In this document: piece by piece, positions 33,191-48,936 of the stretch | Position numbering within the stretch: the first letter of the stretch is position 1 | Layout: each line of letters begins with the position of its first letter | Assembly (NCBI GenBank): GCA_949294185.1 | Contig: CASFGA010000007.1 | Span: 124,001-188,000 of the forward strand | Origin: an uncultured Bacteroides sp. | GTDB lineage: Bacteria; Bacteroidota; Bacteroidia; Bacteroidales; Bacteroidaceae | Direction: 5' to 3' | Length of the DNA: 64,000 bases | Position numbers and translations under genes: made by a program | The notes under the pieces: model-generated | Database searches by the model: none | The model's input: the letters and a program-made list of their open reading frames with translations, nothing else | Told to the model about the DNA's origin: nothing

Positions 33191-33814
33191 TTATTTTGCC
33201 TTACAAAGTCTTTTCAACAAATCTTTATCATTGGCCATCAGCCTGCTTAACTCAATATGTATGCAAGCCTCATCCCTTAACAGTCTGGCTGTAGAGGTCG
33301 ACTGGTCGGCAGATACATCCCATGTCAGCAGAATTGCCTGTATCTTCAGTGCCTTTAACTTCTTTACCAACATTTCGTGGTCGGCATCTCCCGTAACAAG
33401 CACCACATAGTCGAAGTGCCGGATAGTGGACAACTCATAGGCTTCAAGGGCAAACCACACATCTATGCCTTTCTCTATTACCGTTGTATTTCCTTCTTTC
33501 TGCACTTCACGCAGATGCTTGTAATGGAATATCACATCATTCTCAATCAGAGAATCTTCAAATTTCCGTTCGCTATAAAGCAGATGCTTGCTGTTGGCGT
33601 CATTCACCCGGTAACGCCCGCGGAAATAATGGCTCTCCGTGATGTGACACACCGAAAGCTCCGACCCGCTCAGCTGACTAATCTGCTGGCGGATGAACGC
33701 CATCAGAGAAGTCACATTTATATTCAGGGACAAATTTTCCTCCAAAGCTTCATTGACTTTGGCATAATAGCCTCCGTCGATGAAAAGACCGATTGACTGG
33801 TAGTCCGCATTCAT
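33191..33814 (-). CDS. NYN-domain (PIN-like) ribonuclease, last gene of the cmr operon
   Basis: 207 aa covering one NYN/LabA-type PIN-like domain. The acidic residues of the active site are visible: IGLFIDGGYYAKVN (Asp13), KGIDVWFALEAYEL and DYVVLVTGDADHEMLVKKLKAL (paired Asp). The C-terminal RDEACIHIELSRLMANDKDLLKRL is helical. NYN proteins are metal-dependent ribonucleases in many organisms. The start is only 17 bp after the cmr6 stop, same strand, so it is most likely cotranscribed with the CRISPR effector genes, while the next gene downstream is 144 bp away. I do not know it as a standard Cas protein; an accessory RNase role is inferred from position only. Confidence 0.8.
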   Translation of the reverse strand: MNADYQSIGLFIDGGYYAKVNEALEENLSLNINVTSLMAFIRQQISQLSGSELSVCHITESHYFRGRYRVNDANSKHLLYSERKFEDSLIENDVIFHYKHLREVQKEGNTTVIEKGIDVWFALEAYELSTIRHFDYVVLVTGDADHEMLVKKLKALKIQAILLTWDVSADQSTSTARLLRDEACIHIELSRLMANDKDLLKRLCKAK

Positions 33815-33831
33815 ACTATATCATCTTTTTC

Positions 33832-34551
33832 TTAGTCAAACCTTAACTGCCCATACCCTACATTCGTCTTGGCTCCCACACCGACGGCTCCGAGTATTTT
33901 TTTAAACAGTTTTTCCTTAAACTCTGCCGTATATGTATTCTCGTTAATCTCCGAATCGTGCAGCCGGAAACGAAATTCTATCTTGCATCCCGGAGCAATC
34001 TTCAGCATCGTGATGGGAACGGGATCCTTCAAAGGCTCATCCTTATGCGGAGTAATGGAATCGTCTTCCAGTATGCGGCCATCGTATTCCCCCGTGATTA
34101 CCGCATCAAAGAATATATCCCTTTCGTATATCGACCTGCCTTCCCCTTCGAATATAGCCTTACACAAAGGCTTGACATCGCCTTTCCGACAGTCTTTTTC
34201 CTCCAGAAAAAATTCCTCAAAATACTGGCGCAGCACTCCCTTTACAGAAGAGCCGTATATCACCGGCATCCCCCAGGTATAGTCAAAGTGCAGACCTAAG
34301 TTATATCCGCCCTCAATGTTTTTAGAGTCATGCACAAGACCCGTTCCCGTCACCAGTCCCGGATACAAGATCGTGGCCGAAAATACATTTTCACAAGCCA
34401 GATTTTTTATTTCCACAAGAGCAGAAGACTTTATCCGCGTATTAATATCCCCCAAGTCTGCCTTTCCGCTGCCGAATACATAGTCATACTCAAGCTTTTT
34501 ATAATAGTCCTTATAAAAAAGCTTGCCGATGTTATTTATTGTCTTCACCAT
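33832..34551 (-). CDS. cmr6: Type III-B CRISPR RAMP protein Cmr6
   Basis: 239 aa. RAMP fold with ILYPGLVTGTGLVHDSKNIEGGYNLGLHFDYTWGMPVIYGSSVKGVLRQYF, the Cmr6 signature with a G-rich loop and the P-x-x-x-G-S-S-x-K-G motif. The C-terminal GAVGVGAKTNVGYGQL is the second glycine-rich loop. Cmr6 caps the 3' end of the crRNA in the complex. Its start overlaps the end of cmr5 by 20 bp. Confidence 0.93.
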   Translation of the reverse strand: MVKTINNIGKLFYKDYYKKLEYDYVFGSGKADLGDINTRIKSSALVEIKNLACENVFSATILYPGLVTGTGLVHDSKNIEGGYNLGLHFDYTWGMPVIYGSSVKGVLRQYFEEFFLEEKDCRKGDVKPLCKAIFEGEGRSIYERDIFFDAVITGEYDGRILEDDSITPHKDEPLKDPVPITMLKIAPGCKIEFRFRLHDSEINENTYTAEFKEKLFKKILGAVGVGAKTNVGYGQLRFD

Positions 34552-35053
34552 CTTTCTCCAATTTATAGGTTCTGATTACCTGCTTTAACGCTATCGAACA
34601 GTTCAAAATGTCCGTCTTTAGACTTTTTTCTTCCTGTTCCGAAAGTTTTTTCTCCCCGTCCGAAGGATTTTTCGGCACATCCAAAATATACCTTACTAAA
34701 GATTCCGTGCTTTCATATACTTTTTTATCCTCCTTGAGCCTCAGCATTCGGACGATTACCTCCAGCAAACATCTTCGGGCGGCCTTATTTTCTCCCGATT
34801 TCGGGGCATCCTGATAATAGATGGCCAAGGTCGGCTTCAGGCCTATCATCAGGATAGAAACTCCCAACGCCGCAACCTGACCGTTATAACTGTCATAAAT
34901 GGTGGTTTTGCCTTCATTTTGGGTGGTTTCACCTTCACCTTGAGTAGTTTTACCTTTATCTTTAAACAAAGGGCACTCCCATTTCTCGTCCTGCAAGACA
35001 GACTCGGCACGTTCCATCCATTCTTTATTCTCTTTCTTGTTCATAAGACTCAC
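34532..35053 (-). CDS. cmr5: Type III-B CRISPR small subunit Cmr5
   Basis: 173 aa, longer than the common 120-150 aa. The core is recognisable: NGQVAALGVSILMIGLKPTLAIYYQ and CLLEVIVRMLRL, then NCSIALKQVIRTYKLEKD, all helical as in Cmr5. The extra length comes from a Lys/Glu/Thr-rich insert of three near-repeats of KTTQGE (residues about 34-51) and an acidic Ser/Glu linker (NPSDGEKKLSEQEEKS). Cmr5 binds the target RNA filament beside Cmr4. It sits 3 bp after cmr4 and overlaps cmr6 by 20 bp. Confidence 0.88.
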   Translation of the reverse strand: MSLMNKKENKEWMERAESVLQDEKWECPLFKDKGKTTQGEGETTQNEGKTTIYDSYNGQVAALGVSILMIGLKPTLAIYYQDAPKSGENKAARRCLLEVIVRMLRLKEDKKVYESTESLVRYILDVPKNPSDGEKKLSEQEEKSLKTDILNCSIALKQVIRTYKLEKDGEDNK

Positions 35054-35056
35054 GTT

Positions 35057-35758
35057 TTACAGTTTCTTAAACAGACAATATCCGTAACCGATGGTGGCAT
35101 TTGCACCAATCTGAACAATCTTGTCTTTCAGTATATCCAAATCACCGTCATTCGGTGTCATGATAATGGCGGCCAACACCGATTGAGACGGGAGCACCTG
35201 CTCATACCAAAGGTTCACACTCTCGCCATCCTCCAGGCAATTGCGGGCGATAATGGGCAATGAGTCATCGCTGCACAGCTCTTTAAAGTTTTCAACTGAT
35301 TCAGACTCGGCCTTTAATACATTACAGTTCTCCTTTAATGCTTTACAGTTATCTTTTATTGACTCCTTACTGCAATTAGCCCCTAAAGCCGTTGCCTTAT
35401 CTACAAACGCCTGAATGACTTTATCGCAATAAGCCAGTTCATACACCTTGCCACCCTCGCACTGCTCCGGAATAAAAAGCAGGTTCGCATCAAAGAAAAC
35501 GGCACTTCCCTTTTGGGTATCCTCTTTTCCCTTCACCGAGCCGAACAAAGACTGCACATTAACCTTCCCTTTTTGAGGGCCGTTTGTGAGGTATTCCTTT
35601 ATCGCGCCCTTTAGCGAACTGGAGTTTATGCAGGGAATACCCGTCATAACATCCCGCTGGATGGCCTTGTCTATCACACCAAAGTTTCCTACACTTTCAT
35701 TTCCTACATGCAAATTGGTCTGGGGAATAATCAGCCAGACAGAAACACTGTTACTCAT
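35057..35758 (-). CDS. cmr4: Type III-B CRISPR backbone RNase Cmr4
   Basis: 233 aa. The RAMP start TNLHVGNESVGNFGVIDKAIQRDVMTGIPCINSSSLKGAIKEYL is typical of Cmr4. Asp30 in VIDKAIQR is at the position of the catalytic Asp that cuts target RNA at 6-nt intervals. The C-terminal LDILKDKIVQIGANATIGYGYCLFKKL has the usual glycine loop. Several copies form the crRNA-bound spine. It is shorter than the 290-300 aa typical of archaeal Cmr4. Confidence 0.93.
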   Translation of the reverse strand: MSNSVSVWLIIPQTNLHVGNESVGNFGVIDKAIQRDVMTGIPCINSSSLKGAIKEYLTNGPQKGKVNVQSLFGSVKGKEDTQKGSAVFFDANLLFIPEQCEGGKVYELAYCDKVIQAFVDKATALGANCSKESIKDNCKALKENCNVLKAESESVENFKELCSDDSLPIIARNCLEDGESVNLWYEQVLPSQSVLAAIIMTPNDGDLDILKDKIVQIGANATIGYGYCLFKKL

Positions 35759-35769
35759 ATCTTACTTTT

Positions 35770-36858
35770 TTATTTTGCAAATTGATTATAACCTATCTGT
35801 GTAAACTCTTTAAAACTGTCCAAATACTCGCAGAACTTATCTCGCGAATCCTTATCCTTAAAATAAAACACCGAGCCTGCCTCATACAGGTCATAGCGCT
35901 TTTGACGGATTGAATTGTATCTGGTATTATAATTTTGGGGATTTTTACTGTTCCCGGTATGCAAGAAGCGGAAAGGCCGGACCCGCGTAACCGCAAAACG
36001 AATCTTCAAGCCTTCTGTCGACTCTATATAGGCATCCGAAACAAGAACCACCTGCAAGTCATTCTTCGACTGGGGATAACCAACCGTATTCTGCTCCACC
36101 TCCAGCAAAAAGCTCGAGCTGTCTGCCCCTAACTGCACCAACCTATTCTGGTATTTTGTCAGGTCTACTTCCGTCTCCACCTCAAAAGCAAAACAAAAGC
36201 CCTTCTCCAAGCGGTAGGATATCTGTTTATAAAAAGCGGATGAATCTGATTTTCCCTTCTCATTCTTGGCTATCCCGATGCGGGAATCCTCCGTAAACAA
36301 ATCTTCCTCTTTCTTCAATACAGGAGACTTATCCAAAGAAGCATAACAGACATCCATGCCATCCTTGCCGGTATATGCTTCCTCCTTGCCGTCCTTTTCT
36401 ACCCAAATTTTCGGAAGCTCCACTTCCGCGCCATTGATGACGGCTTTCACAGGAGCATCTGCAAAGGCTATCTGCCAGTCGGGAAGCAGAATCCGAAAAT
36501 AGGCTTTAGCGGCTTTCTTATCATAAAGGAAGCAAGGGCCGATACTACTAATCTTGCCGAAATTGTTTGCCTTATGACCCTCCGAAACACAGAAGCTCTT
36601 TTCCCCTATCAAAGTATCCGCCTTATCCTTATTCTTAATCCGGTTGTTTTCTACATCAAACGCATTTCCATCGTTCGACAACAGCAGAAACCGCATCATC
36701 CCCAGCAAAGAAGTCTGCTGAGGGGTCTTGAAAGAATGGATAATGTAGCTGCCATATTTTTCATCGTCATTATCCTTTTTTCTTCCTGACTTAAAAGTCA
36801 TATCACCCCCGAAAAAATATTTTCCGAGCGGAGTCAGTTTTACCAAGTATTTATTCAT
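35770..36858 (-). CDS. cmr3: Type III-B CRISPR protein Cmr3
   Basis: 362 aa from ATG 36858, giving the family start YLVKLTPLGKYFFGGDMTF; an upstream in-frame ATG at 36906 lies in cmr2 and adds non-family residues. PQQTSLLGMMRFLLLSN is the conserved helix of Cmr3, and GFCFAFEVETEVDL near residue 220 leads to the second RAMP half with RVRPFRFLHTGNSKNPQNYN. Cmr3 binds the 5' handle of the crRNA and pairs with Cas10. The start overlaps the end of cmr2 by 8 bp. Confidence 0.9.
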   Translation of the reverse strand: MNKYLVKLTPLGKYFFGGDMTFKSGRKKDNDDEKYGSYIIHSFKTPQQTSLLGMMRFLLLSNDGNAFDVENNRIKNKDKADTLIGEKSFCVSEGHKANNFGKISSIGPCFLYDKKAAKAYFRILLPDWQIAFADAPVKAVINGAEVELPKIWVEKDGKEEAYTGKDGMDVCYASLDKSPVLKKEEDLFTEDSRIGIAKNEKGKSDSSAFYKQISYRLEKGFCFAFEVETEVDLTKYQNRLVQLGADSSSFLLEVEQNTVGYPQSKNDLQVVLVSDAYIESTEGLKIRFAVTRVRPFRFLHTGNSKNPQNYNTRYNSIRQKRYDLYEAGSVFYFKDKDSRDKFCEYLDSFKEFTQIGYNQFAK

Positions 36859-38404
36859 CGTCGTCGCCCTCCCCGTTAATGAATTTGGCTGTACGGAGCA
36901 TGCCATACATTGTAGTCAATATATTTGTTATCGGCTTAGTATCGCCCTTCTTATCCTTATCCGTTTCCACATAACTGTCAAACAATGCGCAAAGCAGTTC
37001 ACGGGTATATTTCAGATAAGTCTCATTTTCCGGATTTTCTTCCTCCATCACTTTATGATAGAAAGCGGCCATACGTTTTTCTCTGTCACCTCCATTCCGG
37101 ATTATTTCCAACAAATCTTCGTTCTGCCGAAGCTTATGCGCAATGGCCGATATTACTTTTTCAGATTCAGAACCTGTCATCAGTGTCGTAAATATCCGAT
37201 AAACCGACCCTTCGGAAGTATCCTTGCAGACAGAACCGGAGAATCCCGTTCCGCTATGCTTGCGCAAACACCAGGCTATGGCATTTTTCCCCTGCACGTT
37301 TTTGGCGGCACCAAACAACAATTCACGTGCTGACTTCAAGGCTTCATACAGCGGATATTTATAATAAGAGACGGACAAGCCATACGATAGCGAGGTATGC
37401 AGCTCTTTGCCGTCTTTCTCCGGACGGCTGATCTTATTTTCACCCATGGCTTCATCCACCGTCTTTTTATAGCAATCATCAATCTCAGACAAAAGTCCGA
37501 ATATATTCCCTTGGTCCGACACGACCGGAGCCAGAAACAGCAAATCATCCCCTCCCGCATAAATGGGCAAGCCACCGAATTCCTTGATCATCCCACACGC
37601 TTTCTCTCCATAGCCCAACAAAGCGGCAGACAAAGTCATCACCTCCTCATTCTTTAAGGCAGAAATGATTGAGCCCATATTGTCTCCATCCGCCTGCACC
37701 ACACAGATATACTTGTGATAAGAGTGATAGTCATTCTTAAATTCAGCTTTTATCTGCTTGTAAAACTCGTCCTCTGTTGTCTCTAAATCCACAGTTTCGT
37801 CTTTATTTTCCTTTTCACGTGCTTCGTCGCATGGCTCTTTCTCAATTTCTGCCTGGTCTTTCAACTTCAATAATTGATAAGTAGCTATTTTTTCCAAAGC
37901 CCGAATCTTGAATTCAGAATTGTTGAACGCATGTTCAAACAAAGGCGAATCGTTTTTTTTCAGAATAAGGCCTAATACCCTAACCCGACTTTCATCTTTT
38001 ACCGGACGGTTATACAGTTCCGTACAGTCAAGCAGCCGGTTCAGTGTCTTGATCACACCCTCTCCGTCTTCGCTTTCTATGGAAACATACATCACATTTA
38101 TATAATCTCTGCCTATCTCTGTTTTAGCAGAAAATGTACAAAAAGCCTTATCCACCACATCTTTTAATTCTTCATCCGTAATGTCTTTCAAGTAGATACG
38201 ATCGGGATACAACCCCACCCCTATTTTCTTGTTACTGTCCAAAGATGCCGGCGATACGATTGTCTTCCCTTTCTTCTTTATCTCTTCGATGATACATTCC
38301 ATCAGAAAAGAAAAAAGATAACTCGCCGCCCACAGTTCACGAGGCTTCCGTGCCATCGAGATTGTATCAATAATGGGACCGATATTTATTGCTGCGTATT
38401 TCAT
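36851..38404 (-). CDS. cmr2: Type III-B signalling subunit Cmr2 (Cas10), no HD domain
   Basis: 517 aa, clearly shorter than HD-containing Cas10 proteins. The N-terminus starts directly in the first palm-like domain (KYAAINIGPIIDTISMARKPRELWAASYLFSFLMECI) with no HD nuclease. The catalytic palm has VVQADGDNMGSI (Asp239) and LPIYAGGDDLLFLAP (GGDD at 284-287), so nucleotide-conjugating activity should be intact. With CorA and NrN encoded in the same operon, the expected product is SAM-AMP rather than cyclic oligoadenylate, as shown for B. fragilis Cmr. A long acidic insert (residues about 183-215) separates the domains. It overlaps cmr1 by 4 bp. Confidence 0.95.
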   Translation of the reverse strand: MKYAAINIGPIIDTISMARKPRELWAASYLFSFLMECIIEEIKKKGKTIVSPASLDSNKKIGVGLYPDRIYLKDITDEELKDVVDKAFCTFSAKTEIGRDYINVMYVSIESEDGEGVIKTLNRLLDCTELYNRPVKDESRVRVLGLILKKNDSPLFEHAFNNSEFKIRALEKIATYQLLKLKDQAEIEKEPCDEAREKENKDETVDLETTEDEFYKQIKAEFKNDYHSYHKYICVVQADGDNMGSIISALKNEEVMTLSAALLGYGEKACGMIKEFGGLPIYAGGDDLLFLAPVVSDQGNIFGLLSEIDDCYKKTVDEAMGENKISRPEKDGKELHTSLSYGLSVSYYKYPLYEALKSARELLFGAAKNVQGKNAIAWCLRKHSGTGFSGSVCKDTSEGSVYRIFTTLMTGSESEKVISAIAHKLRQNEDLLEIIRNGGDREKRMAAFYHKVMEEENPENETYLKYTRELLCALFDSYVETDKDKKGDTKPITNILTTMYGMLRTAKFINGEGDDDE

Positions 38405-39765
38405 AATGCATAAACAGATTTTTTATAGTTATCACGAATTTCCTTAAATATTTCTTGAATGCGTTTACTTTTCGCAGTATTCCGACCAACCAATATCATT
38501 TTAGGTATATCTACTCTATAATATACAAATTTCCGATCGGAATATTGCCTGAATATGAAATCAAAATAATCTTTCATCGAAAATTCTGGATAAATTTCCA
38601 ATGGCAAAAAACCATTTTCAGCACAACAATCTACTGATATATTAAACTTAGATTTCAAGAATTTTTCAGGCACATCATTATACATTATATATATCTTATA
38701 AAACCCATTTTCTTTTATTGGCTTCAATAAAACAGGCGATTTCATTCGCTGAATTTCATCGGACTGTTCTGCTGTCTTACGAAAGCCCTTTTTTAAGGTA
38801 AAAAAATCTTTGTACATTAATCGTCCACCTGAAATTACAGGCTTTTTCCATCGTTCTATTGTAGACAAACCCAAGCAATCTTTAAACAAGAATTCACCTT
38901 CATCCTGAGATGTATAAGTCAAGACATCACTCTTATTGTTATGATTAGCTAATTCCTTCTCATTTATATCTTCACTATTATACGCATCAGACAGCTGATC
39001 ATAAAAAACAGTCTTTATTGTCTTCTTCTCCCATTGCTCTCCTTTTTCTTTTGCGTAAGCAAACATCAAAGACTTCATATAAAACCTTTCTCCAAAACAA
39101 TCATTTATTCCCGAGCGTATAGCTTTATAAAACCATTCCATCTCATTAAAAAGCACTTTTTCTCCACCCTTACATGTAAAATAAGGATAAACAGGCATAG
39201 TCTCTTCCTTTACCTTTACTTCCTCAACAGCATTTTTCCATTTTTCATCGACAACCAATGAAAAACTTCCATAACCTTTACTCTGACGAGTTCCAAAATT
39301 TGTTTGCAGAAAAAAAGATTGCAAATATTTTAATACGACTTTTATCACATCGTCACTCAAAGAATAAAGCGTAAGCGTTATATCATTACACTTCGAAAAA
39401 CATTTCTTAATATTTTTCTTACTTTTATCTTTTTCATTCTGCATATTACCAAAAAACATCGGGGATGCGATTGGTATTTCTTGTCCATTTCTATTTCTCC
39501 TGTAACCCCAATATCCTTCTATAGGAGATAGTATTACATCTTTTCCAATTATCCGCATCTTATAATTCAAGGCCGGATGATCTCCTTTTCCTATCAGCCA
39601 CTTTTTCCTTTTTGCCTCTTCAAATTCTTCTTTGCCCAACTTCCCTAAAATGAACCTGTCCAGTTTAGGTTTCACTTCCGAAGCACGGAGTGTGGCACCA
39701 TACTGTCCGGGCTGAAAATGAATCAGCGGAGTATGCTGCTTTAATGTTACTGTCAGCGTTTTCAT
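38401..39765 (-). CDS. cmr1: Type III-B CRISPR RAMP protein Cmr1
   Basis: 454 aa. The start MKTLTVTLKQHTPLIHFQPGQYGATLRASEVKPKLDRFI is a Cmr1 pattern, followed by FGTRQSKGYGSFSLVV, a glycine-rich RAMP loop after about residue 170. The rest is a large second domain without catalytic motifs (typical of two-domain Cmr1). The gene is AT-richer than the cmr genes around it. Cmr1 completes the foot of the complex at the 3' end of the crRNA. It overlaps by 4 bp with the membrane protein gene upstream and with cmr2 downstream. Confidence 0.85.
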   Translation of the reverse strand: MKTLTVTLKQHTPLIHFQPGQYGATLRASEVKPKLDRFILGKLGKEEFEEAKRKKWLIGKGDHPALNYKMRIIGKDVILSPIEGYWGYRRNRNGQEIPIASPMFFGNMQNEKDKSKKNIKKCFSKCNDITLTLYSLSDDVIKVVLKYLQSFFLQTNFGTRQSKGYGSFSLVVDEKWKNAVEEVKVKEETMPVYPYFTCKGGEKVLFNEMEWFYKAIRSGINDCFGERFYMKSLMFAYAKEKGEQWEKKTIKTVFYDQLSDAYNSEDINEKELANHNNKSDVLTYTSQDEGEFLFKDCLGLSTIERWKKPVISGGRLMYKDFFTLKKGFRKTAEQSDEIQRMKSPVLLKPIKENGFYKIYIMYNDVPEKFLKSKFNISVDCCAENGFLPLEIYPEFSMKDYFDFIFRQYSDRKFVYYRVDIPKMILVGRNTAKSKRIQEIFKEIRDNYKKSVYAL

Positions 39766-40115
39766 AACCTCGATATATTTTTGTTTTCTTCTTCTATTTT
39801 ATTGATTTTCTCATTTGCTTTCCGCAGTTCTTCGCGCAGACCTAACACTTCCTTCATCACTTCAGAAACCCATGCCCCTTTCCACTCTTCGCAATCCTTT
39901 GCTTTCTGTTCCGCAATTCGTTTCTGAGCTTTTACTTCCAACTTTTGATATACACAATAAACACCGGCTACCAAACTTATTATCAACAATGTAGCCAATG
40001 ATCCAACCACAGTCATCACGCAATCCACCTTAAATCCTCGATAAACCAAGAAGCAGCAGATGACTGTTATCGCTGCAATCAAGGCAATCCCTAAGCTAAT
40101 CCACACCCATTTCAT
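39762..40115 (-). CDS. Unknown two-helix membrane protein with C-terminal coiled coil, inside the CRISPR operon
   Basis: 117 aa. Two hydrophobic helices (about residues 3-26, from VWISLGIALIAAITVICCF, and about 34-58, from MTVVGSLATLLIISLVAGVY) are joined by a short loop. A charged helical tail of about 58 residues follows (KLEVKAQKRIAEQKAKD ... LREELRKANEKINKIEEENK) with heptad spacing. This places the tail in the cytoplasm if both ends are inside. No family is recognised. It overlaps corA by 4 bp upstream and cmr1 by 4 bp downstream (ATGA each), so its translation is locked into the operon. The size and layout suggest an accessory to the CorA channel or a second membrane effector; both are inference. 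Confidence 0.85.
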   Translation of the reverse strand: MKWVWISLGIALIAAITVICCFLVYRGFKVDCVMTVVGSLATLLIISLVAGVYCVYQKLEVKAQKRIAEQKAKDCEEWKGAWVSEVMKEVLGLREELRKANEKINKIEEENKNISRL

Positions 40116-41581
40116 AATCTTCTCTTTTTACTATAAATGAAACATAACGCAAACAAAATACCTGCAATCAACGTAACCAACTGCCATCCGAATCCGGAAA
40201 CCTTCACCACGCTGCAAACCTCATTCATCCCCCAAAAGCCGGTTATGATGGAAACAGGCAGGAACAGCGTAGCCAGATTGTTCAGCAAGGTAGCCTTCTT
40301 GCTCCGGTCGCGGTCATCCATCAGCGATACATATTGGTGCAGTTCGCCAATCTCTCCGTCCAGGTCTTTTACATAATCCTCCATCCTCAGATTCTTCTGC
40401 AACATGTCATACAGCTCTATACCCTGATCCTGGGCTGTCACCTCTCTGAAGTAAATCTGATTGACAAAATGAATATATTCCTTATAAAGCGAACTGATTC
40501 GTTTGGATATCACTTCCGTTTCCTGATGCGACAGATGGCTTACCTCTGTCACTTCTTCCGAAAAGCGAAGCATGGAAGCCCTCTGCATCAAAACCAATTC
40601 CACCATCCGCGCATAAATAGTCTCAAAATACGTAAGCAGATAGTCCGGCACTCCATTGTCTGTCAGGTAAACCATCGAATAACGGGTTGCGCCATACAGT
40701 GAGTTCCACTTTTCCCATCGTGGATAGGTATGTTTCTTCAGCAGTTCATATTTCATTTCCTCATTCTGACACGAACAAAAACTTCCGTCAACAAACAAAA
40801 AGCGATACCAGAAATCATCATCACTGCCTTTTCTCAGATATTCATCCAATTTCCCTTTGTATGATTTACACAAATCATTGTTCTTATACCAGGAAAAAAC
40901 AAACATCCGGTCGTCTATCACCGGCTCAAACGACAGATTAACCGCCACCTCCTCTACCAGTTTCGTGATGAAAGACGCAGGCTTCCAGGCATCATTTATC
41001 TGATAACCGCAGAAATCTTCGCGTAACTCTTTTCCAAGTCCTTTAATCTCTATACTTTCCGCCGTTTCGTTGCGCAAAACGATGTCTCCGAAAAACGGCG
41101 GCATAATCCGGCGGCCATATTGGTTGATAAGCAGAATGTCGGCAGGAGCAGACTGGTCTTTCTGGTCATTGCCCAAATAGAGAGACAGAAAGCCCACGCC
41201 CGTAGCATACAGGTTCAGATTCATGGCATCCATCCTCAGGCTGTAAGGTTTTTCCCGGTTCTTGACCTTTATCAGATAGCGGATATCGCTTCCTTCATTC
41301 TGAGGTTCCAGACGCTCAAAATGACGAATCAGGCTCTCCCTACTTCCGTCGTCATACAACACCTTATGCACAAACTGGTAATAATAATTCTTCTCATTAT
41401 ACAGATTGACGGCATCAATGCCCGATGCGGAAGTAGTCCGCTCCCATCCTCCCGTTTCCTGAAAGCGGATGCGGTTCAAGTCTATCTGGTCAGACAGATC
41501 CATGCCGTTTCCGCCTTCCACATTCCACTTGAAAGGAAAGTAAAAAATGTGGTAACTGAAATATTTGTCTTTCGTAGTCAT
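40112..41581 (-). CDS. CorA-family membrane effector of type III CRISPR (SAM-AMP class)
   Basis: 489 aa. A large soluble N-terminal part (about 430 aa) precedes two transmembrane helices at the C-terminus. The first ends in TGFWGMN (residues 447-453), the GMN signature of CorA magnesium channels, and the second is WQLVTLIAGILFALCFIY. A long helix before the membrane (about residues 340-435, with VSLMDDRDRSKKATLLNN) is the usual CorA stalk. The N-terminal domain is enlarged compared with transport CorA. B. fragilis CorA from a type III-B locus is known to be triggered by SAM-AMP and to cause membrane disruption. It overlaps nrn and the small membrane protein by 4 bp each. Confidence 0.9.
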   Translation of the reverse strand: MTTKDKYFSYHIFYFPFKWNVEGGNGMDLSDQIDLNRIRFQETGGWERTTSASGIDAVNLYNEKNYYYQFVHKVLYDDGSRESLIRHFERLEPQNEGSDIRYLIKVKNREKPYSLRMDAMNLNLYATGVGFLSLYLGNDQKDQSAPADILLINQYGRRIMPPFFGDIVLRNETAESIEIKGLGKELREDFCGYQINDAWKPASFITKLVEEVAVNLSFEPVIDDRMFVFSWYKNNDLCKSYKGKLDEYLRKGSDDDFWYRFLFVDGSFCSCQNEEMKYELLKKHTYPRWEKWNSLYGATRYSMVYLTDNGVPDYLLTYFETIYARMVELVLMQRASMLRFSEEVTEVSHLSHQETEVISKRISSLYKEYIHFVNQIYFREVTAQDQGIELYDMLQKNLRMEDYVKDLDGEIGELHQYVSLMDDRDRSKKATLLNNLATLFLPVSIITGFWGMNEVCSVVKVSGFGWQLVTLIAGILFALCFIYSKKRRL

Positions 41582-42336
41582 AATCGCTTTATCCTGTCAA
41601 TCATTTCCATTAATTCTTTCTGCGAATACCAGTTTTGGGAAGTTCCTACGTAACCGGATTCTCCACCGCCGCAAAACATCTTCCCTTCACCGATTTCTTT
41701 TTCAAACAACGCCGCCACCTGCAGAGCCTTTTCACCGTAATATACCCATTCACTGTCTGTATAGACCAACAGCCGGCGATAAGGAAACAGGCGGTCGCAA
41801 ACCGGAGAGAAGCGCGAATTGAAGGCACGGACAATATACAAGTCTCCCACATCCTCACGATTCTCCGCTATGGCTTTTTCCGCCAAGCGCTCGTCTTCTT
41901 CCGTCACGCCCTGCGCCTTGCGGTCTGCCCGCCTAATCCGCTCGATTTCCTCCGGTGCCGCCCCTATCTGCAGCATGCCGGGAATGTAGGCCCGGTCGTT
42001 GGCCGCAACCAGCTGCATGTGTCTGTCCATCGGAAAATCAAGAATCTCCGCCACCTGTTCCAAAGCACTGGGCAAATGAGACAGGTCATTATGATGGTCT
42101 ATCCTTCTGTATACAGACGGCAAAGACATGTCCTCGCGCAGTTCGATGCCATATACGGTTCTTCTCTGCCGCTCCGCTTCGGATATTTCCTTACGGTAAC
42201 TGCTTGCCACGGCATTCTGCCAGTTCAAACGACGATCCGCATAGTCCGCCTTCCGGCTCTCAAGCAAGCCGCGGATGGTCAGCATCTCCAAATCATATCC
42301 GCCCAAAAGAAAAAGGCTGTCTTCTGCTTTATTCAT
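41578..42336 (-). CDS. DHH-family phosphodiesterase, NrN-like (SAM-AMP off-switch)
   Basis: 252 aa. RRIDHHNDLSH (Asp80-His81-His82) is the DHH motif. A C-terminal DHHA1-like tail contains MFCGGGESGYVG (GGG at 223-225), the substrate-binding glycine motif of nanoRNase-like enzymes. The N-terminal GGYDLEMLTIRGLL replaces the usual first DxD motif start with a variant. In B. fragilis, NrN next to CorA degrades SAM-AMP and so resets signalling. Position and motifs agree with that role. It overlaps cas6 upstream and corA downstream by 4 bp each. Confidence 0.87.
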   Translation of the reverse strand: MNKAEDSLFLLGGYDLEMLTIRGLLESRKADYADRRLNWQNAVASSYRKEISEAERQRRTVYGIELREDMSLPSVYRRIDHHNDLSHLPSALEQVAEILDFPMDRHMQLVAANDRAYIPGMLQIGAAPEEIERIRRADRKAQGVTEEDERLAEKAIAENREDVGDLYIVRAFNSRFSPVCDRLFPYRRLLVYTDSEWVYYGEKALQVAALFEKEIGEGKMFCGGGESGYVGTSQNWYSQKELMEMIDRIKRL

Positions 42337-42998
42337 AACCGCTTGACTATTCCATTGCTCATGCTTGCCGATTTACCAAGACCGATATCTTCGGGCAAGC
42401 TGACATTGCAGCTGAATCTGGCTGAAAAACTCATCAACTCCACTCCCTTATAATCCACCAGACCGGATGCCTCCAACTGCTGTATCCGGCAGATTACCGG
42501 TCGCTCAAAAAAGCTACCGACTCCTTTGGCAAAGGAAAGAATATTCCCGACCAGAATCTTTTCCAACATAGAGATACGTTCGGCCAGGCTCTCTGTCTGT
42601 TGATAAATGCGATAATTTGTTCCGTTCAGAGGCAGCCACCTGCTGATGGCATAAGTCCGGGATGCTTCATCACACACTACCGCAAATTTTTCCGAACGAA
42701 TCACCGCTACATTCATGACCGTCTGTCTGTTTCCCAAGCTGAATGAAAGACTCGGCCTTCCGCCAAACAGTTCAACCAAGGCTTCCGCACCCTGATTTAT
42801 CCCCATCAAGGCGGCACAGCCCTTTATCCGCTTGTATTGCACCAACGGATAAGCATAATGAAACCCTTCTGCACAGTGGTTGTGAAACAACGCATTTCCT
42901 TCGGAAAGCCGGATAACACTTCCCCGGAAATAAGGTATTTCAGCCGAAGCAATCTTTGTATCAAACAAGACTGTAGCCAAGCGTATCGTGTTCATCAC
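42333..42998 (-). CDS. cas6: CRISPR pre-crRNA endonuclease Cas6 (Bacteroidetes type)
   Basis: 221 aa. The N-terminal half has the Bacteroidetes Cas6 pattern IPYFRGSVIRLSEGNALFHNHCAEGFHYAYPLVQYKRIKG, with His residues that could act as the general acid. The C-terminal half is a second ferredoxin-like fold ending in the glycine-rich loop DIGLGKSASMSNGIVKRL. It processes the 35-nt repeats into crRNAs with an 8-nt handle. It is the first gene after array A and starts a chain of 4-bp overlaps down to cmr2. Confidence 0.88.
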   Translation of the reverse strand: MMNTIRLATVLFDTKIASAEIPYFRGSVIRLSEGNALFHNHCAEGFHYAYPLVQYKRIKGCAALMGINQGAEALVELFGGRPSLSFSLGNRQTVMNVAVIRSEKFAVVCDEASRTYAISRWLPLNGTNYRIYQQTESLAERISMLEKILVGNILSFAKGVGSFFERPVICRIQQLEASGLVDYKGVELMSFSARFSCNVSLPEDIGLGKSASMSNGIVKRL

Positions 42999-43504: not shown

Positions 43505-44446
43505 TGTTTTATCCTTATTCTAATGGAATACTCCCTGACGATTAATTCAGAAGCCGTTGGAAGCTCTTTTGTCTGTCTTAATCCTTATTCTAATGGAATA
43601 CTCCCTGACAAATTTTTGCTTTTAAAGATGTTATATTGCGGGGTCTTAATCCTTATTCTAATGGAATACTCCCTGACCTCTCAGGAGGTTATCGAGGAAG
43701 GTCTTGATTACGTCTTAATCCTTATTCTAATGGAATACTCCCTGACAGCGTACGGACTTAAAGGCCTGATTGTTCCAAAGAGTCTTAATCCTTATTCTAA
43801 TGGAATACTCCCTGACATCCAAACGACAGCCGGCATCGCCCTGACTTCAGCGTCTTAATCCTTATTCTAATGGAATACTCCCTGACCGGAATTTAAAATA
43901 CAAGACGCCAACCTGATGCTGTCTTAATCCTTATTCTAATGGAATACTCCCTGACAAACCCCCGACGAAAAGATTCTCCTGCTCACGGCTTGTCTTAATC
44001 CTTATTCTAATGGAATACTCCCTGACTTCCTTATTTTTGCAGGATGAAAAAAAGAACAAGTGTGTCTTAATCCTTATTCTAATGGAATACTCCCTGACAA
44101 CGGTATAGGTTTTAAGGCGCCGTTCGTCTCGTCTTAATCCTTATTCTAATGGAATACTCCCTGACATCGTGGAATATGGCATTCTGCCGAAGTTGCTCGT
44201 CTTAATCCTTATTCTAATGGAATACTCCCTGACGAATGTGTATAACTGGTGGATAGCATGTCTGCCAATGTCTTAATCCTTATTCTAATGGAATACTCCC
44301 TGACCGACAGCGAAAACGGTATCATTACGGCTAAGAGAATGTCTTAATCCTTATTCTAATGGAATACTCCCTGACAGGTGTTAGGACTGCAAGGAAAGAA
44401 GAAGCAGGAGTGTCTTAATCCTTATTCTAATGGAATACTCCCTGAC
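43505..44446 (-). CRISPR. CRISPR array A: 14 repeats of 35 bp, 13 spacers
   Basis: The plus-strand repeat is GTCTTAATCCTTATTCTAAT followed by GGAATACTCCCTGAC. Repeats start at 43505 (5' end degenerate, GTTTTATCC), 43575, 43643, 43712, 43782, 43852, 43921, 43992, 44064, 44131, 44199, 44270, 44341 and 44412. Spacers are 32-37 bp. Transcription is leftward: the decayed repeat is on the left, the leader with promoters on the right, and on the minus strand the repeat ends in ATTAAGAC, a typical 8-nt 5' handle. Every spacer is different from those of array B by eye. The cas6-cmr operon follows downstream. Confidence 0.98.
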
Positions 44447-44545
44447 AATCTATCAGAGAGTGAGTTACACTTTTTGCCGTTCATCTTTTCATACAGTTTC
44501 TCCCTTTTCCGCCAGGGAGTTAGTCCAATTAGAATACTTTTTTCG

Positions 44546-44577
44546 CAAATGTAGGGATTTGAAAGATACATTCCAAA
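44546..44577 (-). promoter_or_regulatory. Leader A promoter, proximal
   Basis: On the minus strand TTTG (plus 44574-44577), 20 bases, then TACATTTG (plus 44546-44553): an exact match to the Bacteroides consensus. Transcription would start near 44540, about 90 bases before the first repeat. Confidence 0.8.
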
Positions 44578-44756
44578 TAAAAACAACGCTTTTTTCAAAC
44601 ATTCATCTGGATATCAACACCTTGCATTTTCGCAAGACAAAACGCCGTCTAAACTGTTTACGGGATTTGCGAAAACGGCGGAAAGAGGGATTTGCAAGCG
44701 CTTGATTATGAATACACAACTTCATAGAGCGAAGGCATGATGAGGATGCTTTTTCG

Positions 44757-44787
44757 CAAATGTAACAACTAAAAATCACAAAACAAA
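44757..44787 (-). promoter_or_regulatory. Leader A promoter, distal
   Basis: On the minus strand TTTG (plus 44784-44787), 19 bases, then TACATTTG (plus 44757-44764). It shares the element TACATTTGCGAAAAA with the proximal promoter. Confidence 0.65.
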
Positions 44788-44943
44788 CTCTTGCGAACTT
44801 TTTGTCTGCCGGGAGAAAACGAGGAAATGCATCCAACCCATTACATATCAACGGTTTAACAAAACCAGAAATCTTCGCAAATAAAAATCTTTACATCCGT
44901 TTCCGCATTTACAATGAGTCAGCAAACCACAAACTCAAAACCT

Positions 44944-45237
44944 TTATACCACTGATATCTTTTCATACTTTTTCCGCAACGGAGGCTGATAAACAATCTT
45001 CGCATAACAGTCCAGACAGATGGGATAGTATATCACCGTATCTTCACGCGGCTTGATTTTTCCCCCAATGTCATTACGCAGCTTTTCATACTGAGCATCC
45101 GTCAGCAGACACTCGAAGACACTGTAGTTTACACGGACTCCCACTTTTTCCAGCAGCTTCACCACACGGTTCCGACGTCTGTCATCAGACACATCATAAG
45201 CCACCACGATAAAATTCTTCTTCGCTCTCATCACCAT
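44944..45237 (-). CDS. cas2: CRISPR integration protein Cas2
   Basis: 97 aa with the ferredoxin-like Cas2 start NFIVVAYDVSDDRRRNRVVKLLEKVGVRVNYSVFEC, where the metal-site Asp follows the first strand (AYDVSDD). It forms the integration complex with Cas1. Its start overlaps the end of RT-Cas1 by 7 bp. The three possible start codons (MVM...) do not change the call. Confidence 0.96.
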   Translation of the reverse strand: MVMRAKKNFIVVAYDVSDDRRRNRVVKLLEKVGVRVNYSVFECLLTDAQYEKLRNDIGGKIKPREDTVIYYPICLDCYAKIVYQPPLRKKYEKISVV

Positions 45238-47501
45238 TTGGCTATATAAGGTTTGTAATGTTTCCCTGTTTCAATGAAATCGGCTATCTCTTTCGCCTGC
45301 CGACGAATAATCTGTTCCATCGTCATCTCCTCACCCCGATACCGCTCATAACGGTTCAAACGTTCAAGCACACTTTTGGCTAACAGTTTCCGGGTATCAT
45401 CCGACAGAAGTCCCTTTTCCACTTTCAGCTGCTTGCCCTTTTGCACCAAAGTCACAACCACTCTGTCCACCACCTGCGAACGAAACAGTTCCACCACATC
45501 ATAGACAAATGTAGGCTTACCCGACTGGCGAACATGAACAATGCTGTCGAACGGATTCAGCTTTGCCCCAAGCAATGCCTGCCATACCCGTGCATACAAA
45601 ATGGCATAGCCGTAATTAAGCATACAGTTCACCAAGTCTGTCGCTCCTTTCCGTTCCCGCTTTACAAATCCCACCTCATCATCCGAAAGCAGCTCGCGGA
45701 TATATGCCCAATATTTCACGGCACCTTGTGACTCATACCCCACCAGCAAAGTCAGATAATCTGCATCATCCGTGCGGTCGGCATGCAGAAACTCCCTGAA
45801 ACGGACATGAAAAGCGGCCATATCCTCATATTTACCTTTCAACGCATCATAACAATGCTTGTGATATTTATGAAAATATTTCAACAGACTGAACTGATTG
45901 CGCAGTTTTGCCCGCACAATGGAAGAGGCCAACTCCAACCGCTTTTCCGTTCCACACTGAGCCTGCTTGTTCCACAGCGTGCTTTCGATGTATTTGTTCG
46001 ACAAGACAGATCCGGTATGCACCCCCGAAGAATTAAAGAAGTCGATGGTTATCTTATTGGCGAGGCAATAATCTATCAGATTGGAAGACAATGTCACCCC
46101 CTTGCTGCCAATGGTAATGTGTGAAAGCATGCCTGCCGGAATCTGCCGCACAATCTTTCCCTGCTGTTTCACAGTGACTCCTTTACCTGAAAGCCCTACA
46201 AAACAGCCATAGGTATTTATCAAAAGTTCACTACATTCAGCCTCACGCTTCCTGTATTCTGCCTTCCGTTGGTTGATGATACGCCTGTTCTGCTCTTTCG
46301 CCCTCTGTTCTTTGGCAATGCCCTTGCAGAGATCATACACTTCGATATAGTCTTGAAGTATCCGCTTCTTATGCAGCTGATATTCATTAGAAAGATAGTC
46401 TATTTCAGACACCATCCGCTTCAACACAGCCCGGTTTGCTATCTCACTGTGCGACTCTTCTATCATGCGCTTTATCCGGCTGTAAAGACAGTCATCCAAG
46501 CCACGGAGCACATGCTGAGGAAGCAAGACGGCATAATAATTCTTTACGCCCCTCCACGAGCGAAGGCTTTCCGGCGACAAGCCTTTAGAAGTAAGAGTCA
46601 AAGACTCTATCCTTTCCTTCAGGTCGGCCTCCTTCTTTTGCGAAATGTTCAATCCGTCTTTCGAAACCGTGATGCCTAAAAATTCAAATCCCTTGCGCAA
46701 TTCCACAATTATCGGCGGATTCAGCTTCAGCCCCAAATGGGTTTGCAGATATACCGACAACTGACCAAGTAGCCCTTTTGCCTGCTCGTGTGATTCGCAC
46801 AACAGACAAAAGTCATCGGCATAGCGCACATACGAACGGCACAAAGTCAACACATATTTGTCGAACGGATGAAGATAAAGGTTAGACAACAAAGGGGAAA
46901 GGATTGCACCTTGGGGAACCCCATCCACCGCATCACTCCACTTCAACCGCTTGTTGACAACCCCCATCTGTACCGACAGCATGATAAGCCGCACCACCTC
47001 TTCGTCCGGAATCAGGGTGTGAAGACGGGCGGCCAATAGATGATGGTTGATGGAATCAAAATAGTTGTCGATGTCAAGACGCAAAGCCCAACGGTTCTTC
47101 TTTTTCACACACTCATTATATACCCGTCTTACCGCCTTCGCATGCCCTTTGTTGGGACGGTAAGCGTAACTGTTTTCCACAAAAAGATTTTCAAACAAAG
47201 GCTCAACCAAAGTCTTGATGGCACACTGCACAATCTTATCCTTTACCGACAGCAGTCCCAACTTCCGAACCTCTTTCTTCTTTTTGGGAATCTCAATGCG
47301 AAGATAAGGTTCGGGAGCCCATGCGCCGGAACGCAGTTCTTCTGACAATTCGGCGATATATTTTGCCAAATCATCTTCAAAACAAGCCAAAGTAACCCCA
47401 TCTATTCCACCCGCCGCATTTTTGCCTTTCACAATCTTCCACGCTTCATACAGCGTTTCTTCCCGACACAATGTGGCATAAAGAGAAGTTTGTGCATCCA
47501 T
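45231..47501 (-). CDS. cas1: Reverse transcriptase-Cas1 fusion
   Basis: 756 aa from ATG 47501; the upstream in-frame ATG at 47555 translates array sequence and is rejected. Residues about 1-340 are a group II intron-like reverse transcriptase: LRLDIDNYFDSI (Asp143/Asp145), VPQGAILSPLLSN and SYVRYADDFCLL (YADD at 227-230), all intact. A linker rich in Lys/Arg/Glu (about 345-425) leads to Cas1 (from about residue 430). Its metal ligands are present as LVGYESQGAVKYW (Glu590), IVHVRQ (His656) and FVYDVVELFR (Asp668, Glu671). There is no N-terminal Cas6 domain, unlike some relatives. It should allow spacer capture from RNA. It begins 13 bp after the last, degenerate repeat of array B. Confidence 0.97.
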   Translation of the reverse strand: MDAQTSLYATLCREETLYEAWKIVKGKNAAGGIDGVTLACFEDDLAKYIAELSEELRSGAWAPEPYLRIEIPKKKKEVRKLGLLSVKDKIVQCAIKTLVEPLFENLFVENSYAYRPNKGHAKAVRRVYNECVKKKNRWALRLDIDNYFDSINHHLLAARLHTLIPDEEVVRLIMLSVQMGVVNKRLKWSDAVDGVPQGAILSPLLSNLYLHPFDKYVLTLCRSYVRYADDFCLLCESHEQAKGLLGQLSVYLQTHLGLKLNPPIIVELRKGFEFLGITVSKDGLNISQKKEADLKERIESLTLTSKGLSPESLRSWRGVKNYYAVLLPQHVLRGLDDCLYSRIKRMIEESHSEIANRAVLKRMVSEIDYLSNEYQLHKKRILQDYIEVYDLCKGIAKEQRAKEQNRRIINQRKAEYRKREAECSELLINTYGCFVGLSGKGVTVKQQGKIVRQIPAGMLSHITIGSKGVTLSSNLIDYCLANKITIDFFNSSGVHTGSVLSNKYIESTLWNKQAQCGTEKRLELASSIVRAKLRNQFSLLKYFHKYHKHCYDALKGKYEDMAAFHVRFREFLHADRTDDADYLTLLVGYESQGAVKYWAYIRELLSDDEVGFVKRERKGATDLVNCMLNYGYAILYARVWQALLGAKLNPFDSIVHVRQSGKPTFVYDVVELFRSQVVDRVVVTLVQKGKQLKVEKGLLSDDTRKLLAKSVLERLNRYERYRGEEMTMEQIIRRQAKEIADFIETGKHYKPYIAKW

Positions 47502-47514
47502 AGTCTTTGTCTTT

Positions 47515-48936
47515 AATGTTATCCTTATTCTAATGGAATACTCACAGACATTCAAGAAAATGAAAAAAATATATTAGCCATAGTGTCTTAATCCTTATTC
47601 TAATGGAATACTCACAGACCATCTTTTACACTTCCGAATGGAGAGAGAAAAGCTTGTCTTAATCCTTATTCTAATGGAATACTCACAGACGTCTGTAGAT
47701 GACGACAGAGAGACTCCGAGCTGGCTGTCTTAATCCTTATTCTAATGGAATACTCACAGACACAAATTTTTATATTCAATTATCATCCAGATTATGTCTT
47801 AATCCTTATTCTAATGGAATAGAATTATAAGCCGTGGGTAAGAGCAGGATGGGCGTCTTAATCCTTATTCTAATGGAATACTCACAGACTCTTTTCGTGT
47901 TTTTGGCACTCGCTACCGTACTGTCTTAATCCTTATTCTAATGGAATACTCACAGACATTAAAAAAATTATTAACTTAAATAGGTATTATTGTCTTAATC
48001 CTTATTCTAATGGAATACTCCCTGACTGGAAAATAAGAATAGCTGCAACTTTATATTCTTTCGTCTTAATCCTTATTCTAATGGAATACTCCCTGACACC
48101 ACGAATTTTCGATTAGGGTCAGAACGAAGTCGTCTTAATCCTTATTCTAATGGAATACTCCCTGACACTACTTCGTCGGCGAAGGTACACGCGACTACTC
48201 CGTCTTAATCCTTATTCTAATGGAATACTCCCTGACGACCGCGTGCTGTACACTCACTACATCGGCGCTTGTCTTAATCCTTATTCTAATGGAATACTCC
48301 CTGACTATATATACGACGAGGAAACAAACGGCTGCGTTTTTGTCTTAATCCTTATTCTAATGGAATACTCCCTGACCGTGAGTATTAACAGCGCAAGCGC
48401 GCAGAGTGTTGTCTTAATCCTTATTCTAATGGAATACTCCCTGACAAACGTTCGTCGCTACGGTTAATTTTACCAAAATTGTCTTAATCCTTATTCTAAT
48501 GGAATACTCCCTGACGAAGTCATTGACTGGTGACTTGCGAGGCGAGTTGGTGTCTTAATCCTTATTCTAATGGAATACTCCCTGACAAACAAACAAAATG
48601 AGAAAACAGTTAAAACATTATCGTCTTAATCCTTATTCTAATGGAATACTCCCTGACTTATTTTGAGTCGTTTAACGAAGCGAACGAAGCTATGTCTTAA
48701 TCCTTATTCTAATGGAATACTCCCTGACGGCAAAAAAGGTGCTGCAATGACCCGTGCTATGGTGTCTTAATCCTTATTCTAATGGAATACTCCCTGACAT
48801 AGACTATGGCAGACTCCATGACTTGTACTTAGGTCTTAATCCTTATTCTAATGGAATACTCCCTGACTAGAGGTTGAATTCGAGGGAAAGAACTACACTG
48901 TGTCTTAATCCTTATTCTAATGGAATACTCCCTGAC
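47515..48936 (-). CRISPR. CRISPR array B: 21 repeats of 35 bp, 20 spacers, two repeat versions
   Basis: Repeats start at 47515 (degenerate), 47585, 47656, 47727, 47796 (cut to 25 bp), 47855, 47923, 47992, 48063, 48132, 48202, 48271, 48342, 48411, 48481, 48552, 48623, 48694, 48764, 48833 and 48902. The leader-distal repeats, where complete, end in CTCACAGAC, while the 14 leader-side ones end in CTCCCTGAC as in array A. The direction is leftward as for array A. RT-cas1 begins 13 bp after the last repeat, so the adaptation genes are probably read from the array transcript. Confidence 0.98.

What the first reader, a model, noticed from the sequence alone, without database searches (positions are those of the whole stretch)
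39762..40115. Undescribed 117-aa two-helix/coiled-coil membrane protein locked between corA and cmr1
It shares ATGA overlaps with corA and cmr1, so it is translated as part of the unit. It has two membrane helices and a 58-residue charged coiled-coil tail, with no family I can name. A membrane protein next to a membrane effector could be a CorA subunit, a safety valve, or an independent effector sensing the Cmr complex. I regard this as the best candidate for a new component in the window.
Basis: partly seen in the sequence, partly recalled or inferred. Interest (0 to 1): 0.85.

Follow-up and report, generated by a model that had tools for sequence, protein, structure and literature searches.

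The report
Small membrane partner of CRISPR CorA
Inside a bacterial immune operon of the kind that signals with SAM-AMP sits a small, fast-evolving membrane-stalk gene that recurs beside the CorA membrane effector in related bacteria, and it may be an overlooked partner that helps control that effector.

Summary
The gene is real: a 117-codon ORF on the minus strand (39762-40115), joined by ATGA overlaps to corA and cmr1, under purifying selection (dN/dS 0.35). The locus is a full CorA/NrN type III-B system of the SAM-AMP kind. Its one close homologue (78%, Phocaeicola) is in the same place. Using CorA as bait, 12 of 22 loci have a small 1-2 TM protein with a charged tail starting -25 to +6 bases from the end of corA; other junctions, 0 of 130 by rule. 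It is not universal: 10 of 22 lack it there, including 6 of 7 NrN-CorA fusions; one has a similar gene at the operon head. Sequence homology across the set is supported for about half of the members. AlphaFold gives a TM hairpin whose second helix runs on as a long stalk. Best reading: an auxiliary CorA subunit (gating restraint, perhaps docking the SAM-AMP-degrading enzyme). No binding was tested. Caveat: a 78-position PADLOC model filed as 'Cmr1' probably describes short members. The published reconstitution had no such protein, gave immunity without it, and left CorA toxicity and the NrN requirement unexplained, so the idea is directly testable.

The parts
39762..40115 (-). X117: 117-aa membrane-hairpin / coiled-coil stalk protein (the finding)
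40044..40100 (-). X117 first membrane segment (aa 6-24)
   Evidence: hydropathy; helix 2-25 in the model
39966..40022 (-). X117 second membrane segment (aa 32-50)
   Evidence: hydropathy; first part of helix 30-116 in the model
39786..39869 (-). X117 heptad-repeat stretch of the tail (aa 83-110)
   Evidence: 0 of 300 shuffles reach its heptad score
40112..41581 (-). corA: CRISPR CorA membrane effector
   Evidence: PADLOC PDLC01174 3.8e-125; Pfam CorA 26.7 bits, just under its cut-off of 27
41578..42336 (-). nrn: DHH-family, CorA-associated phosphodiesterase
   Evidence: PADLOC DHH_CorA 1.9e-75
42333..42998 (-). cas6
38401..39765 (-). cmr1
   Evidence: PADLOC PDLC01492 6.6e-71
36851..38404 (-). 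cas10/cmr2 (GGDD readable in the translation)
35770..36906 (-). cmr3
35057..35758 (-). cmr4
34532..35053 (-). cmr5
33832..34551 (-). cmr6
33191..33814 (-). NYN ribonuclease
   Evidence: Pfam NYN 1.4e-10
44944..45237 (-). cas2
45231..47555 (-). RT-cas1 fusion

Best explanation
X117 is an accessory membrane subunit of the CorA effector in SAM-AMP-type III-B CRISPR. SHOWN: a selected gene, coupled to corA, and small TM+tail genes that recur directly behind corA. INFERRED: it lies in the inner membrane with its tail in the cytoplasm; the long helical stalk runs beside the cytoplasmic part of the CorA oligomer; there it stabilises or restrains the channel so that CorA does little harm until SAM-AMP binds, and it may place the SAM-AMP-degrading enzyme (NrN or DEDD) at the channel. 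The ATGA overlap would keep subunit and channel in step.
For: A small TM ORF lies behind corA and before cmr1 in 12 of 22 CorA loci; an automatic rule counts 11 of 22 (it misses L030, where a cas6 gene shares the gap) and 0 of 130 other junctions (Fisher p 4e-11 for 11 v. 0; loci are not independent, and most other junctions have no room for a gene). Shuffles of the 12 gaps would give 0.05 such ORFs in all. X begins -25 to +6 bases from the end of corA in 12 of 12; to cmr1 it is -4 to 961 (coordinates, ranges from them; start codons are mechanical). X occurs on both sides of the midpoint-rooted CorA tree. In L002 cmr1 is a different allele from about residue 75 on (46% identity overall), while corA is 92% and X 78% identical. 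Purifying selection. Model: helix 2-25, helix 30-116, mean pLDDT 89. Literature: B. fragilis CorA alone is toxic, CorA and NrN are both needed, and no contact between them was detected (PMC10600005, sections 5 and 9).
Against: 10 of 22 loci have no such gene there (L029, L037, L040, L045, L047, L048, L049, L050, L058, L059). Cmr, Cas6, CorA and NrN suffice for plasmid immunity in E. coli. No interaction was tested. The loci were chosen by CorA, so the sample cannot show X without CorA. Held-out profile scores do not separate L033, L038, L041 and L046 from their own shuffles (41 to 93 of 300 as good), so the 12 may include unrelated small TM proteins in one slot; the heptad pattern is significant in only 6 of 15 tails. 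One of four cmr1 loci without CorA (L052) also has small TM ORFs upstream of cmr1, the nearer ending 72 bases before it. A helix hairpin is easy for AlphaFold, and pTM is 0.46.
Confidence: 0.45

Rival explanations
1. Tether for the SAM-AMP-degrading enzyme: the tail holds NrN or DEDD at CorA, so that the signal is cleared at the channel. Where NrN is fused to CorA no tether is needed.
For: X at the junction in 10 of 14 loci with a separate enzyme, 1 of 7 with an NrN-CorA fusion (Fisher p 0.024); L034's enzyme is not on its short contig. Published need for CorA and NrN without direct binding.
Against: Four of the seven fusions form one clade; counting it once gives 1 of 4 and p 0.25. L033 is a fusion frame (broken by one stop) and still has X. 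L037 (separate NrN), L040 and L048 (separate DEDD) have none. X occurs with both NrN and DEDD, which look like unrelated enzymes.
Confidence: 0.2
2. Tether that brings the Cmr complex to the membrane near CorA, so that SAM-AMP is made locally.
For: Lies between corA and cmr1 and shares 4 bases with cmr1 in the window and L002; one of four CorA-less cmr1 loci has small TM ORFs upstream of cmr1.
Against: Distance to cmr1 varies up to 961 bases; X stayed when cmr1 changed between window and L002; L029 has the similar gene at the operon head.
Confidence: 0.1
3. Independent membrane effector (pore or depolariser) acting beside CorA.
For: Small membrane effectors such as Cam1 and Csx23 exist in type III CRISPR (PMC11229360, passages). 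Weak PADLOC hits of single relatives to models with TM parts: CARF_TM 0.002 (L002), SAVED_TM 0.02 (L032), Csx28 0.004 (L035).
Against: P0001 itself has no PADLOC match at E 0.1 and no room for a sensor domain beyond a helix. The weak hits cover the TM and coil part and stay above 0.002.
Confidence: 0.08
4. Folding or insertion helper, or a fast-turning gene with a weak role, kept by coupling in the operon.
For: Fast divergence (11-23% identity to P0001 beyond L002), absence from 10 of 22 loci, immunity without it in E. coli.
Against: Purifying selection; recurrence in 8 families of the order and one of another class (L046).
Confidence: 0.17

Closest known systems
CorA/NrN SAM-AMP type III-B CRISPR of Bacteroides fragilis (Chi et al. 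2023, PMC10600005; sections 4, 5, 9 and passages seen)
   Same: Same gene set: cmr1-6, cas6, corA, nrn, NYN, RT-cas1, cas2 (NYN of B. fragilis in PMC11346440, passages).
   Different: The reconstituted system had no small membrane protein, and the parts I saw name none. Whether B. fragilis has one is unsettled: a gene list (PMC5704556, legend passage) has four hypothetical genes between DUF88 (= NYN, recalled) and Cmr2, after an MJ0978-type gene; MJ0978-like proteins are a RAMP family (PMC1462988, passages). If that gene is cas6, then NrN, CorA and Cmr1 account for three of the four and one is unexplained; if cas6 is among the four, none is. A lead only; no B. fragilis sequence was available.
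PADLOC model PDLC01505, filed as 'Cmr1'
   Same: 78 positions; matches X of L041 (1.1e-5, model positions 1-57) and L035 (0.008); the only match in genomes G564, G518 and G196 is the X gene (E 6.5e-4, 0.04, 0.17). Cmr1 of the window, L036 and L039 match PDLC01492 and not this model at E 1.
   Different: No match to P0001 at E 0.1 and none in the window's genome at E 1. Only 3 of the 28 places it found in 24 genomes are X genes, and it rings in 5 of 14 control genomes at E 1: a weak model.
Csx28, CARF_TM, SAVED_TM, ZorB models (defence membrane proteins)
   Same: TM plus coil; weak hits of single relatives: Csx28 0.0035 (L035), CARF_TM 0.0022 (L002), SAVED_TM 0.023 (L032), ZorB 6.4e-5 (L029's operon-head gene).
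   Different: One member each, none for P0001; the ZorB hit means that L029's gene could be something else.

Membership tests
CorA/SAM-AMP type III-B CRISPR system (the locus) | CorA effector of the CRISPR type | tested here: met
   PDLC01174 3.8e-125
CorA/SAM-AMP type III-B CRISPR system (the locus) | SAM-AMP-degrading enzyme beside corA | tested here: met
   DHH_CorA 1.9e-75, (family only; activity not tested)
CorA/SAM-AMP type III-B CRISPR system (the locus) | cas10 with cmr1, cmr3-6 | tested here: met
CorA/SAM-AMP type III-B CRISPR system (the locus) | Cas10 makes SAM-AMP | not testable with these tools
   inferred from kinship
CorA transporter family (is X117 a CorA paralogue?) | CorA domain or GMN motif | tested here: not met
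   no CorA match for P0001; no GMN in its sequence
Cmr1 (RAMP) | true Cmr1 profile match by X117 | tested here: not met
   model is all helix
PADLOC PDLC01505 ('Cmr1', 78 positions) | profile match by P0001 | tested here: not met
   no match at E 0.1; L041 and L035 do match
Cam1/Csx23-type membrane effectors | nucleotide-binding sensor domain | tested here: not met
   P0001: no CARF or SAVED match at E 0.1; L002: CARF_TM 0.0022 over its TM and coil part
CorA-linked small membrane family (proposed) | directly behind corA in type III-B loci | tested here: met
   12 of 22 loci; rule: 11 of 22 v. 0 of 130 other junctions
CorA-linked small membrane family (proposed) | members homologous in sequence | tested here: inconclusive
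   held-out profile, 14 members: at most 5 of 300 shuffles as good for 6 (window, L002, L029, L032, L036, L039), 12-27 for 4, 41-93 for 4
CorA-linked small membrane family (proposed) | coiled-coil tail | tested here: inconclusive
   heptad score p <= 0.013 in 6 of 15 tails, window's included
CorA-linked small membrane family (proposed) | binds or acts on CorA | not testable with these tools
   needs co-fold or bench work

The most novel reading that the evidence does not exclude
X117 is the missing third component of SAM-AMP immunity: a membrane stalk that builds one complex of CorA channel, degrading enzyme and possibly Cmr, so that the signal is made, sensed and removed at the channel. Its absence from the published reconstitution would explain why CorA was toxic alone and why NrN was needed although no contact was found.
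Probability: 0.18. Interest if true: 0.82.

Novelty: new variant of a known kind. Interest (0 to 1): 0.6.

Why it matters
The authors of the SAM-AMP work name CorA's toxicity without NrN and the need for both proteins as open questions (PMC10600005, section 9). A membrane protein coupled to corA that recurs behind corA, but was not in that reconstitution, is an untested variable. If it gates CorA or docks the enzyme, it changes the model of this pathway; if it does nothing, that is quickly shown.

Tried and rejected
Homologue search by sequence alone was nearly blind: genome contigs gave one relative (L002); plasmids and phages none; viral contigs none for X117, CorA or a CorA alignment. I therefore collected loci by CorA and looked at the slot.

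Rows dropped: of 24 genomes with a CorA-model match, 20 carry a type III-B locus with corA next to cmr1 and enter the count, with 2 plasmid loci (of 4 plasmid records: three Arcobacter records of the same length and match, one used; Haliscomenobacter). Dropped: G294/L031, G640/L044 and G322/L043 (CorA-like gene, no BLAST match to the window's other proteins) and G519/L042 (corA remnant with a 72-aa TM gene behind it, no cas10). From the held-out test I dropped the L043 protein and the second ORF of L038. L059's gap holds a 398-aa ORF that splits cmr1, not X.

Control with cmr1 loci without CorA was too small: TIGR01894 matched 4 places in 3 of 198 genomes and not the window's own Cmr1. One search printed the wrong strand for two of the four; one search repeats it: three have no TM ORF just before cmr1, one (L052) has two small TM ORFs upstream, not abutting.

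The X117 model matched nothing in the PDB (best E 6.2); a PDB profile search gave two chains at E 0.012 and 0.029 (a calcium load-activated calcium channel and an inner-ear membrane protein), taken as compositional. Pfam and PHROG matches of members are scattered over single families. The C-terminal part of longer members is a low-confidence helix pair and was not identified. Promoter and terminator scan: no excess over shuffles.

Papers: sections 4, 5, 9 and passages of PMC10600005; passages only of PMC11229360, PMC11346440, PMC12255297, PMC12669027, PMC6967390, PMC9367070, PMC5704556, PMC10910872, PMC1462988. Listings that showed no paper on such a protein. Two published screens for type III accessory genes (recalled: Shmakov 2018, Shah 2019) are not held, so a listing there cannot be excluded.

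Full report
WHAT IS THERE. The finding is a 117-codon ORF on the minus strand, 39762-40115. It shares ATGA with corA before it and with cmr1 after it, in a chain of 4-base overlaps cas6/nrn, nrn/corA, corA/X, X/cmr1, cmr1/cas10 (coordinates). Profiles confirm the neighbours: CorA (3.8e-125) and a CorA-associated DHH protein, i.e. NrN (1.9e-75), Cmr1, Cas10, Cmr3-6, Cas6, Cas2, RT-Cas1 and NYN. This is a CorA/NrN type III-B locus of the kind shown in B. fragilis to signal by SAM-AMP (PMC10600005).

IS IT A GENE. Against that relative X117 is 78% identical, dS 0.34, dN 0.12 (Fisher p 0.0008). The tail changes less (dN 0.08) than the membrane part (0.17). Shuffled gap sequence gives a comparable ORF in 0 of 300 trials.

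SHAPE. Two hydrophobic segments, then a tail that begins K/R-rich (5 K/R, 2 D/E in 15 residues) and has a heptad pattern; by the positive-inside rule (established knowledge) the tail is cytoplasmic. AlphaFold with a 14-row alignment: helix 2-25, helix 30-116, mean pLDDT 89, pTM 0.46. So the second TM helix runs on as a stalk of about 60 residues, some 90 angstrom if straight (my arithmetic). The 136-aa member of L036: one helix 3-88, then a low-confidence helix pair. The heptad pattern is significant in 6 of 15 tails tested.

RELATIVES BY POSITION. Sequence search is nearly blind here, so CorA was the bait: matches in 5 of 301 genomes of the window's family, 15 of 393 of its order, 6 of 395 of its phylum, and 1 of 120, 2 of 9, 1 of 175, 4 of 80 in four narrower sets. 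These overlap: 24 genomes, 20 usable; with 2 plasmid loci, 22 loci. A small TM protein lies behind corA and before cmr1 in 12: window and L002 (117 aa each), L030 (161), L032 (174), L033 (109), L034 (195), L035 (63), L036 (136), L038 (80, with a 62-aa continuation as a second overlapping ORF), L039 (137), L041 (74), L046 (88). In L039 and L041 corA itself is in two ORFs. The automatic rule (ORF of 50 aa or more with a TM segment over half of the gap) counts 11 of 22, since in L030 a cas6 gene shares the gap; it counts 0 of 130 other same-strand junctions, which include 4 between pieces of split corA and mostly have no gap to fill. Without it: L029, L037, L040, L045, L047, L048, L049, L050, L058, L059.

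L029, of the window's genus, has 37 bases between corA and cmr1 but a 182-aa two-TM coil protein at the operon head, upstream of NYN. Only 2 of 300 of its own shuffles reach its held-out profile score, but it also matches a ZorB model at 6e-5. I read it as the same gene moved, with moderate confidence.

ARE THEY ONE FAMILY. BLAST links in a set of 16: window-L002 (3e-59), window-L030 (3e-5 one way, 0.003 the other), L033-L036 (3e-5), L036 with the second ORF of L038 (2e-16), L035-L041 (1e-7). Held-out profiles against segment-preserving shuffles: all 14 members score above their shuffle mean; at most 5 of 300 shuffles are as good for 6, 12 to 27 for 4 (L030, L034, L035, L042), 41 to 93 for 4 (L033, L038, L041, L046). 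So homology is supported for about half and unproved for the rest. The combined profile, members included by construction, finds the expected gene at E 1e-10 to 5e-31 in 12 of 21 CorA genomes (in G182 the operon-head gene), L042's gene at 5e-4, nothing else below 0.009, and misses L035's gene although that is one of its rows. In 281 genomes of the family it gives E < 1e-22 only in 4 CorA genomes, all rows of the profile; 14 others match at 2e-5 to 0.009, of which I opened 5 and judged them by eye to be other proteins.

PARTNER. X begins -25 to +6 bases from the end of corA in 12 of 12; to cmr1 it is -4 to 961 (ranges). Between window and L002 cmr1 differs from about residue 75 on (46% identity overall) while the DNA on either side is 87-89% identical; X stayed. 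These point to CorA. On the enzyme: X in 7 of 9 loci with separate NrN and 3 of 5 with DEDD (DEDDh profile 4e-5 and 1e-4 for two of these; the others by BLAST to them), 1 of 7 fused (L033, whose fused frame has one stop), and in L034, whose enzyme is not on its contig; 10 of 14 v. 1 of 7, p 0.024, but p 0.25 when the clade of four fusions counts once. That is a hint, no more. Against a strict tie to CorA: one of four cmr1 loci without CorA has small TM ORFs upstream of cmr1, not abutting; the control is tiny.

MECHANISM. Best: auxiliary CorA subunit whose stalk runs beside CorA and restrains or tunes it, perhaps placing the degrading enzyme (0.45). Rivals: enzyme tether (0.2), helper or weak role (0.17), Cmr tether (0.1), independent effector (0.08). 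Only the gene, its selection, its coupling, the shape prediction and the recurrence behind corA are shown; every contact is inferred. Strongest facts against: 10 of 22 loci lack it, and immunity in E. coli was obtained without it.

KNOWN OR NEW. P0001 has no Pfam or NCBIfam match above cut-off and no PHROG match better than 0.008. A 78-position PADLOC model filed as Cmr1 (PDLC01505) matches X of L041 (1.1e-5) and L035 (0.008) and is matched only by the X gene in three genomes, whereas three true Cmr1 proteins match another model; but only 3 of its 28 places in 24 genomes are X genes. So short members seem to be in that library under a wrong name. I found no description of function (listings 8, 11, 35, 36, 63, 76, 83, 90; two relevant screens not held). 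For B. fragilis a published gene list has four hypothetical genes between DUF88 and Cmr2, after an MJ0978-type RAMP; this may leave room for one unexplained gene beside NrN, CorA and Cmr1, or cas6 may be among the four. A lead, not a result.

VERDICT. A real, selected, CorA-linked, fast-evolving and optional component of a known system; function open but easily tested.

Noticed in passing
window 38401-39765; L002 8351-9685: cmr1 is a mosaic: the first ~75 residues are nearly the same in the window and the Phocaeicola locus, the rest only distantly alike, while the DNA on either side is 87-89% identical.
   Followed up: partly
L037 11838-13004, L032 12012-13178, L045 848-2041: A second, larger membrane protein (388-397 aa, no Pfam match above cut-off, no PADLOC match for the L037 copy) recurs in three CorA loci, before nrn in two and after cmr6 in one.
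   Followed up: partly
L037 6705-7329, L032 6221-6839: A small gene pair lies between cmr1 and cas10 in two CorA loci; in L037 the first matches PADLOC candidate PDC-S09 (4e-25) and the second looks HEPN-like (weak CARF_HEPN match, 0.013).
   Followed up: partly
L033 7236-9548: NrN and CorA form one frame broken by a single TAG; either a damaged fusion or a real stop.
   Followed up: partly
L048 7546-9618: CorA of 690 aa has an extra hydrophobic segment near its C-terminus and overlaps cmr1 by 62 bases; no separate small protein there.
   Followed up: no
window 43508-44900 and 47995-49391: Two repeat arrays flank RT-cas1/cas2 and the stretches, including nearly the same ORFs behind the arrays, align at about 80%, as if array and flank were duplicated.
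   Followed up: no
PADLOC PDLC01505: A 78-position model labelled Cmr1 appears to describe the small membrane protein rather than Cmr1; annotation pipelines may call such genes Cmr1.
   Followed up: partly
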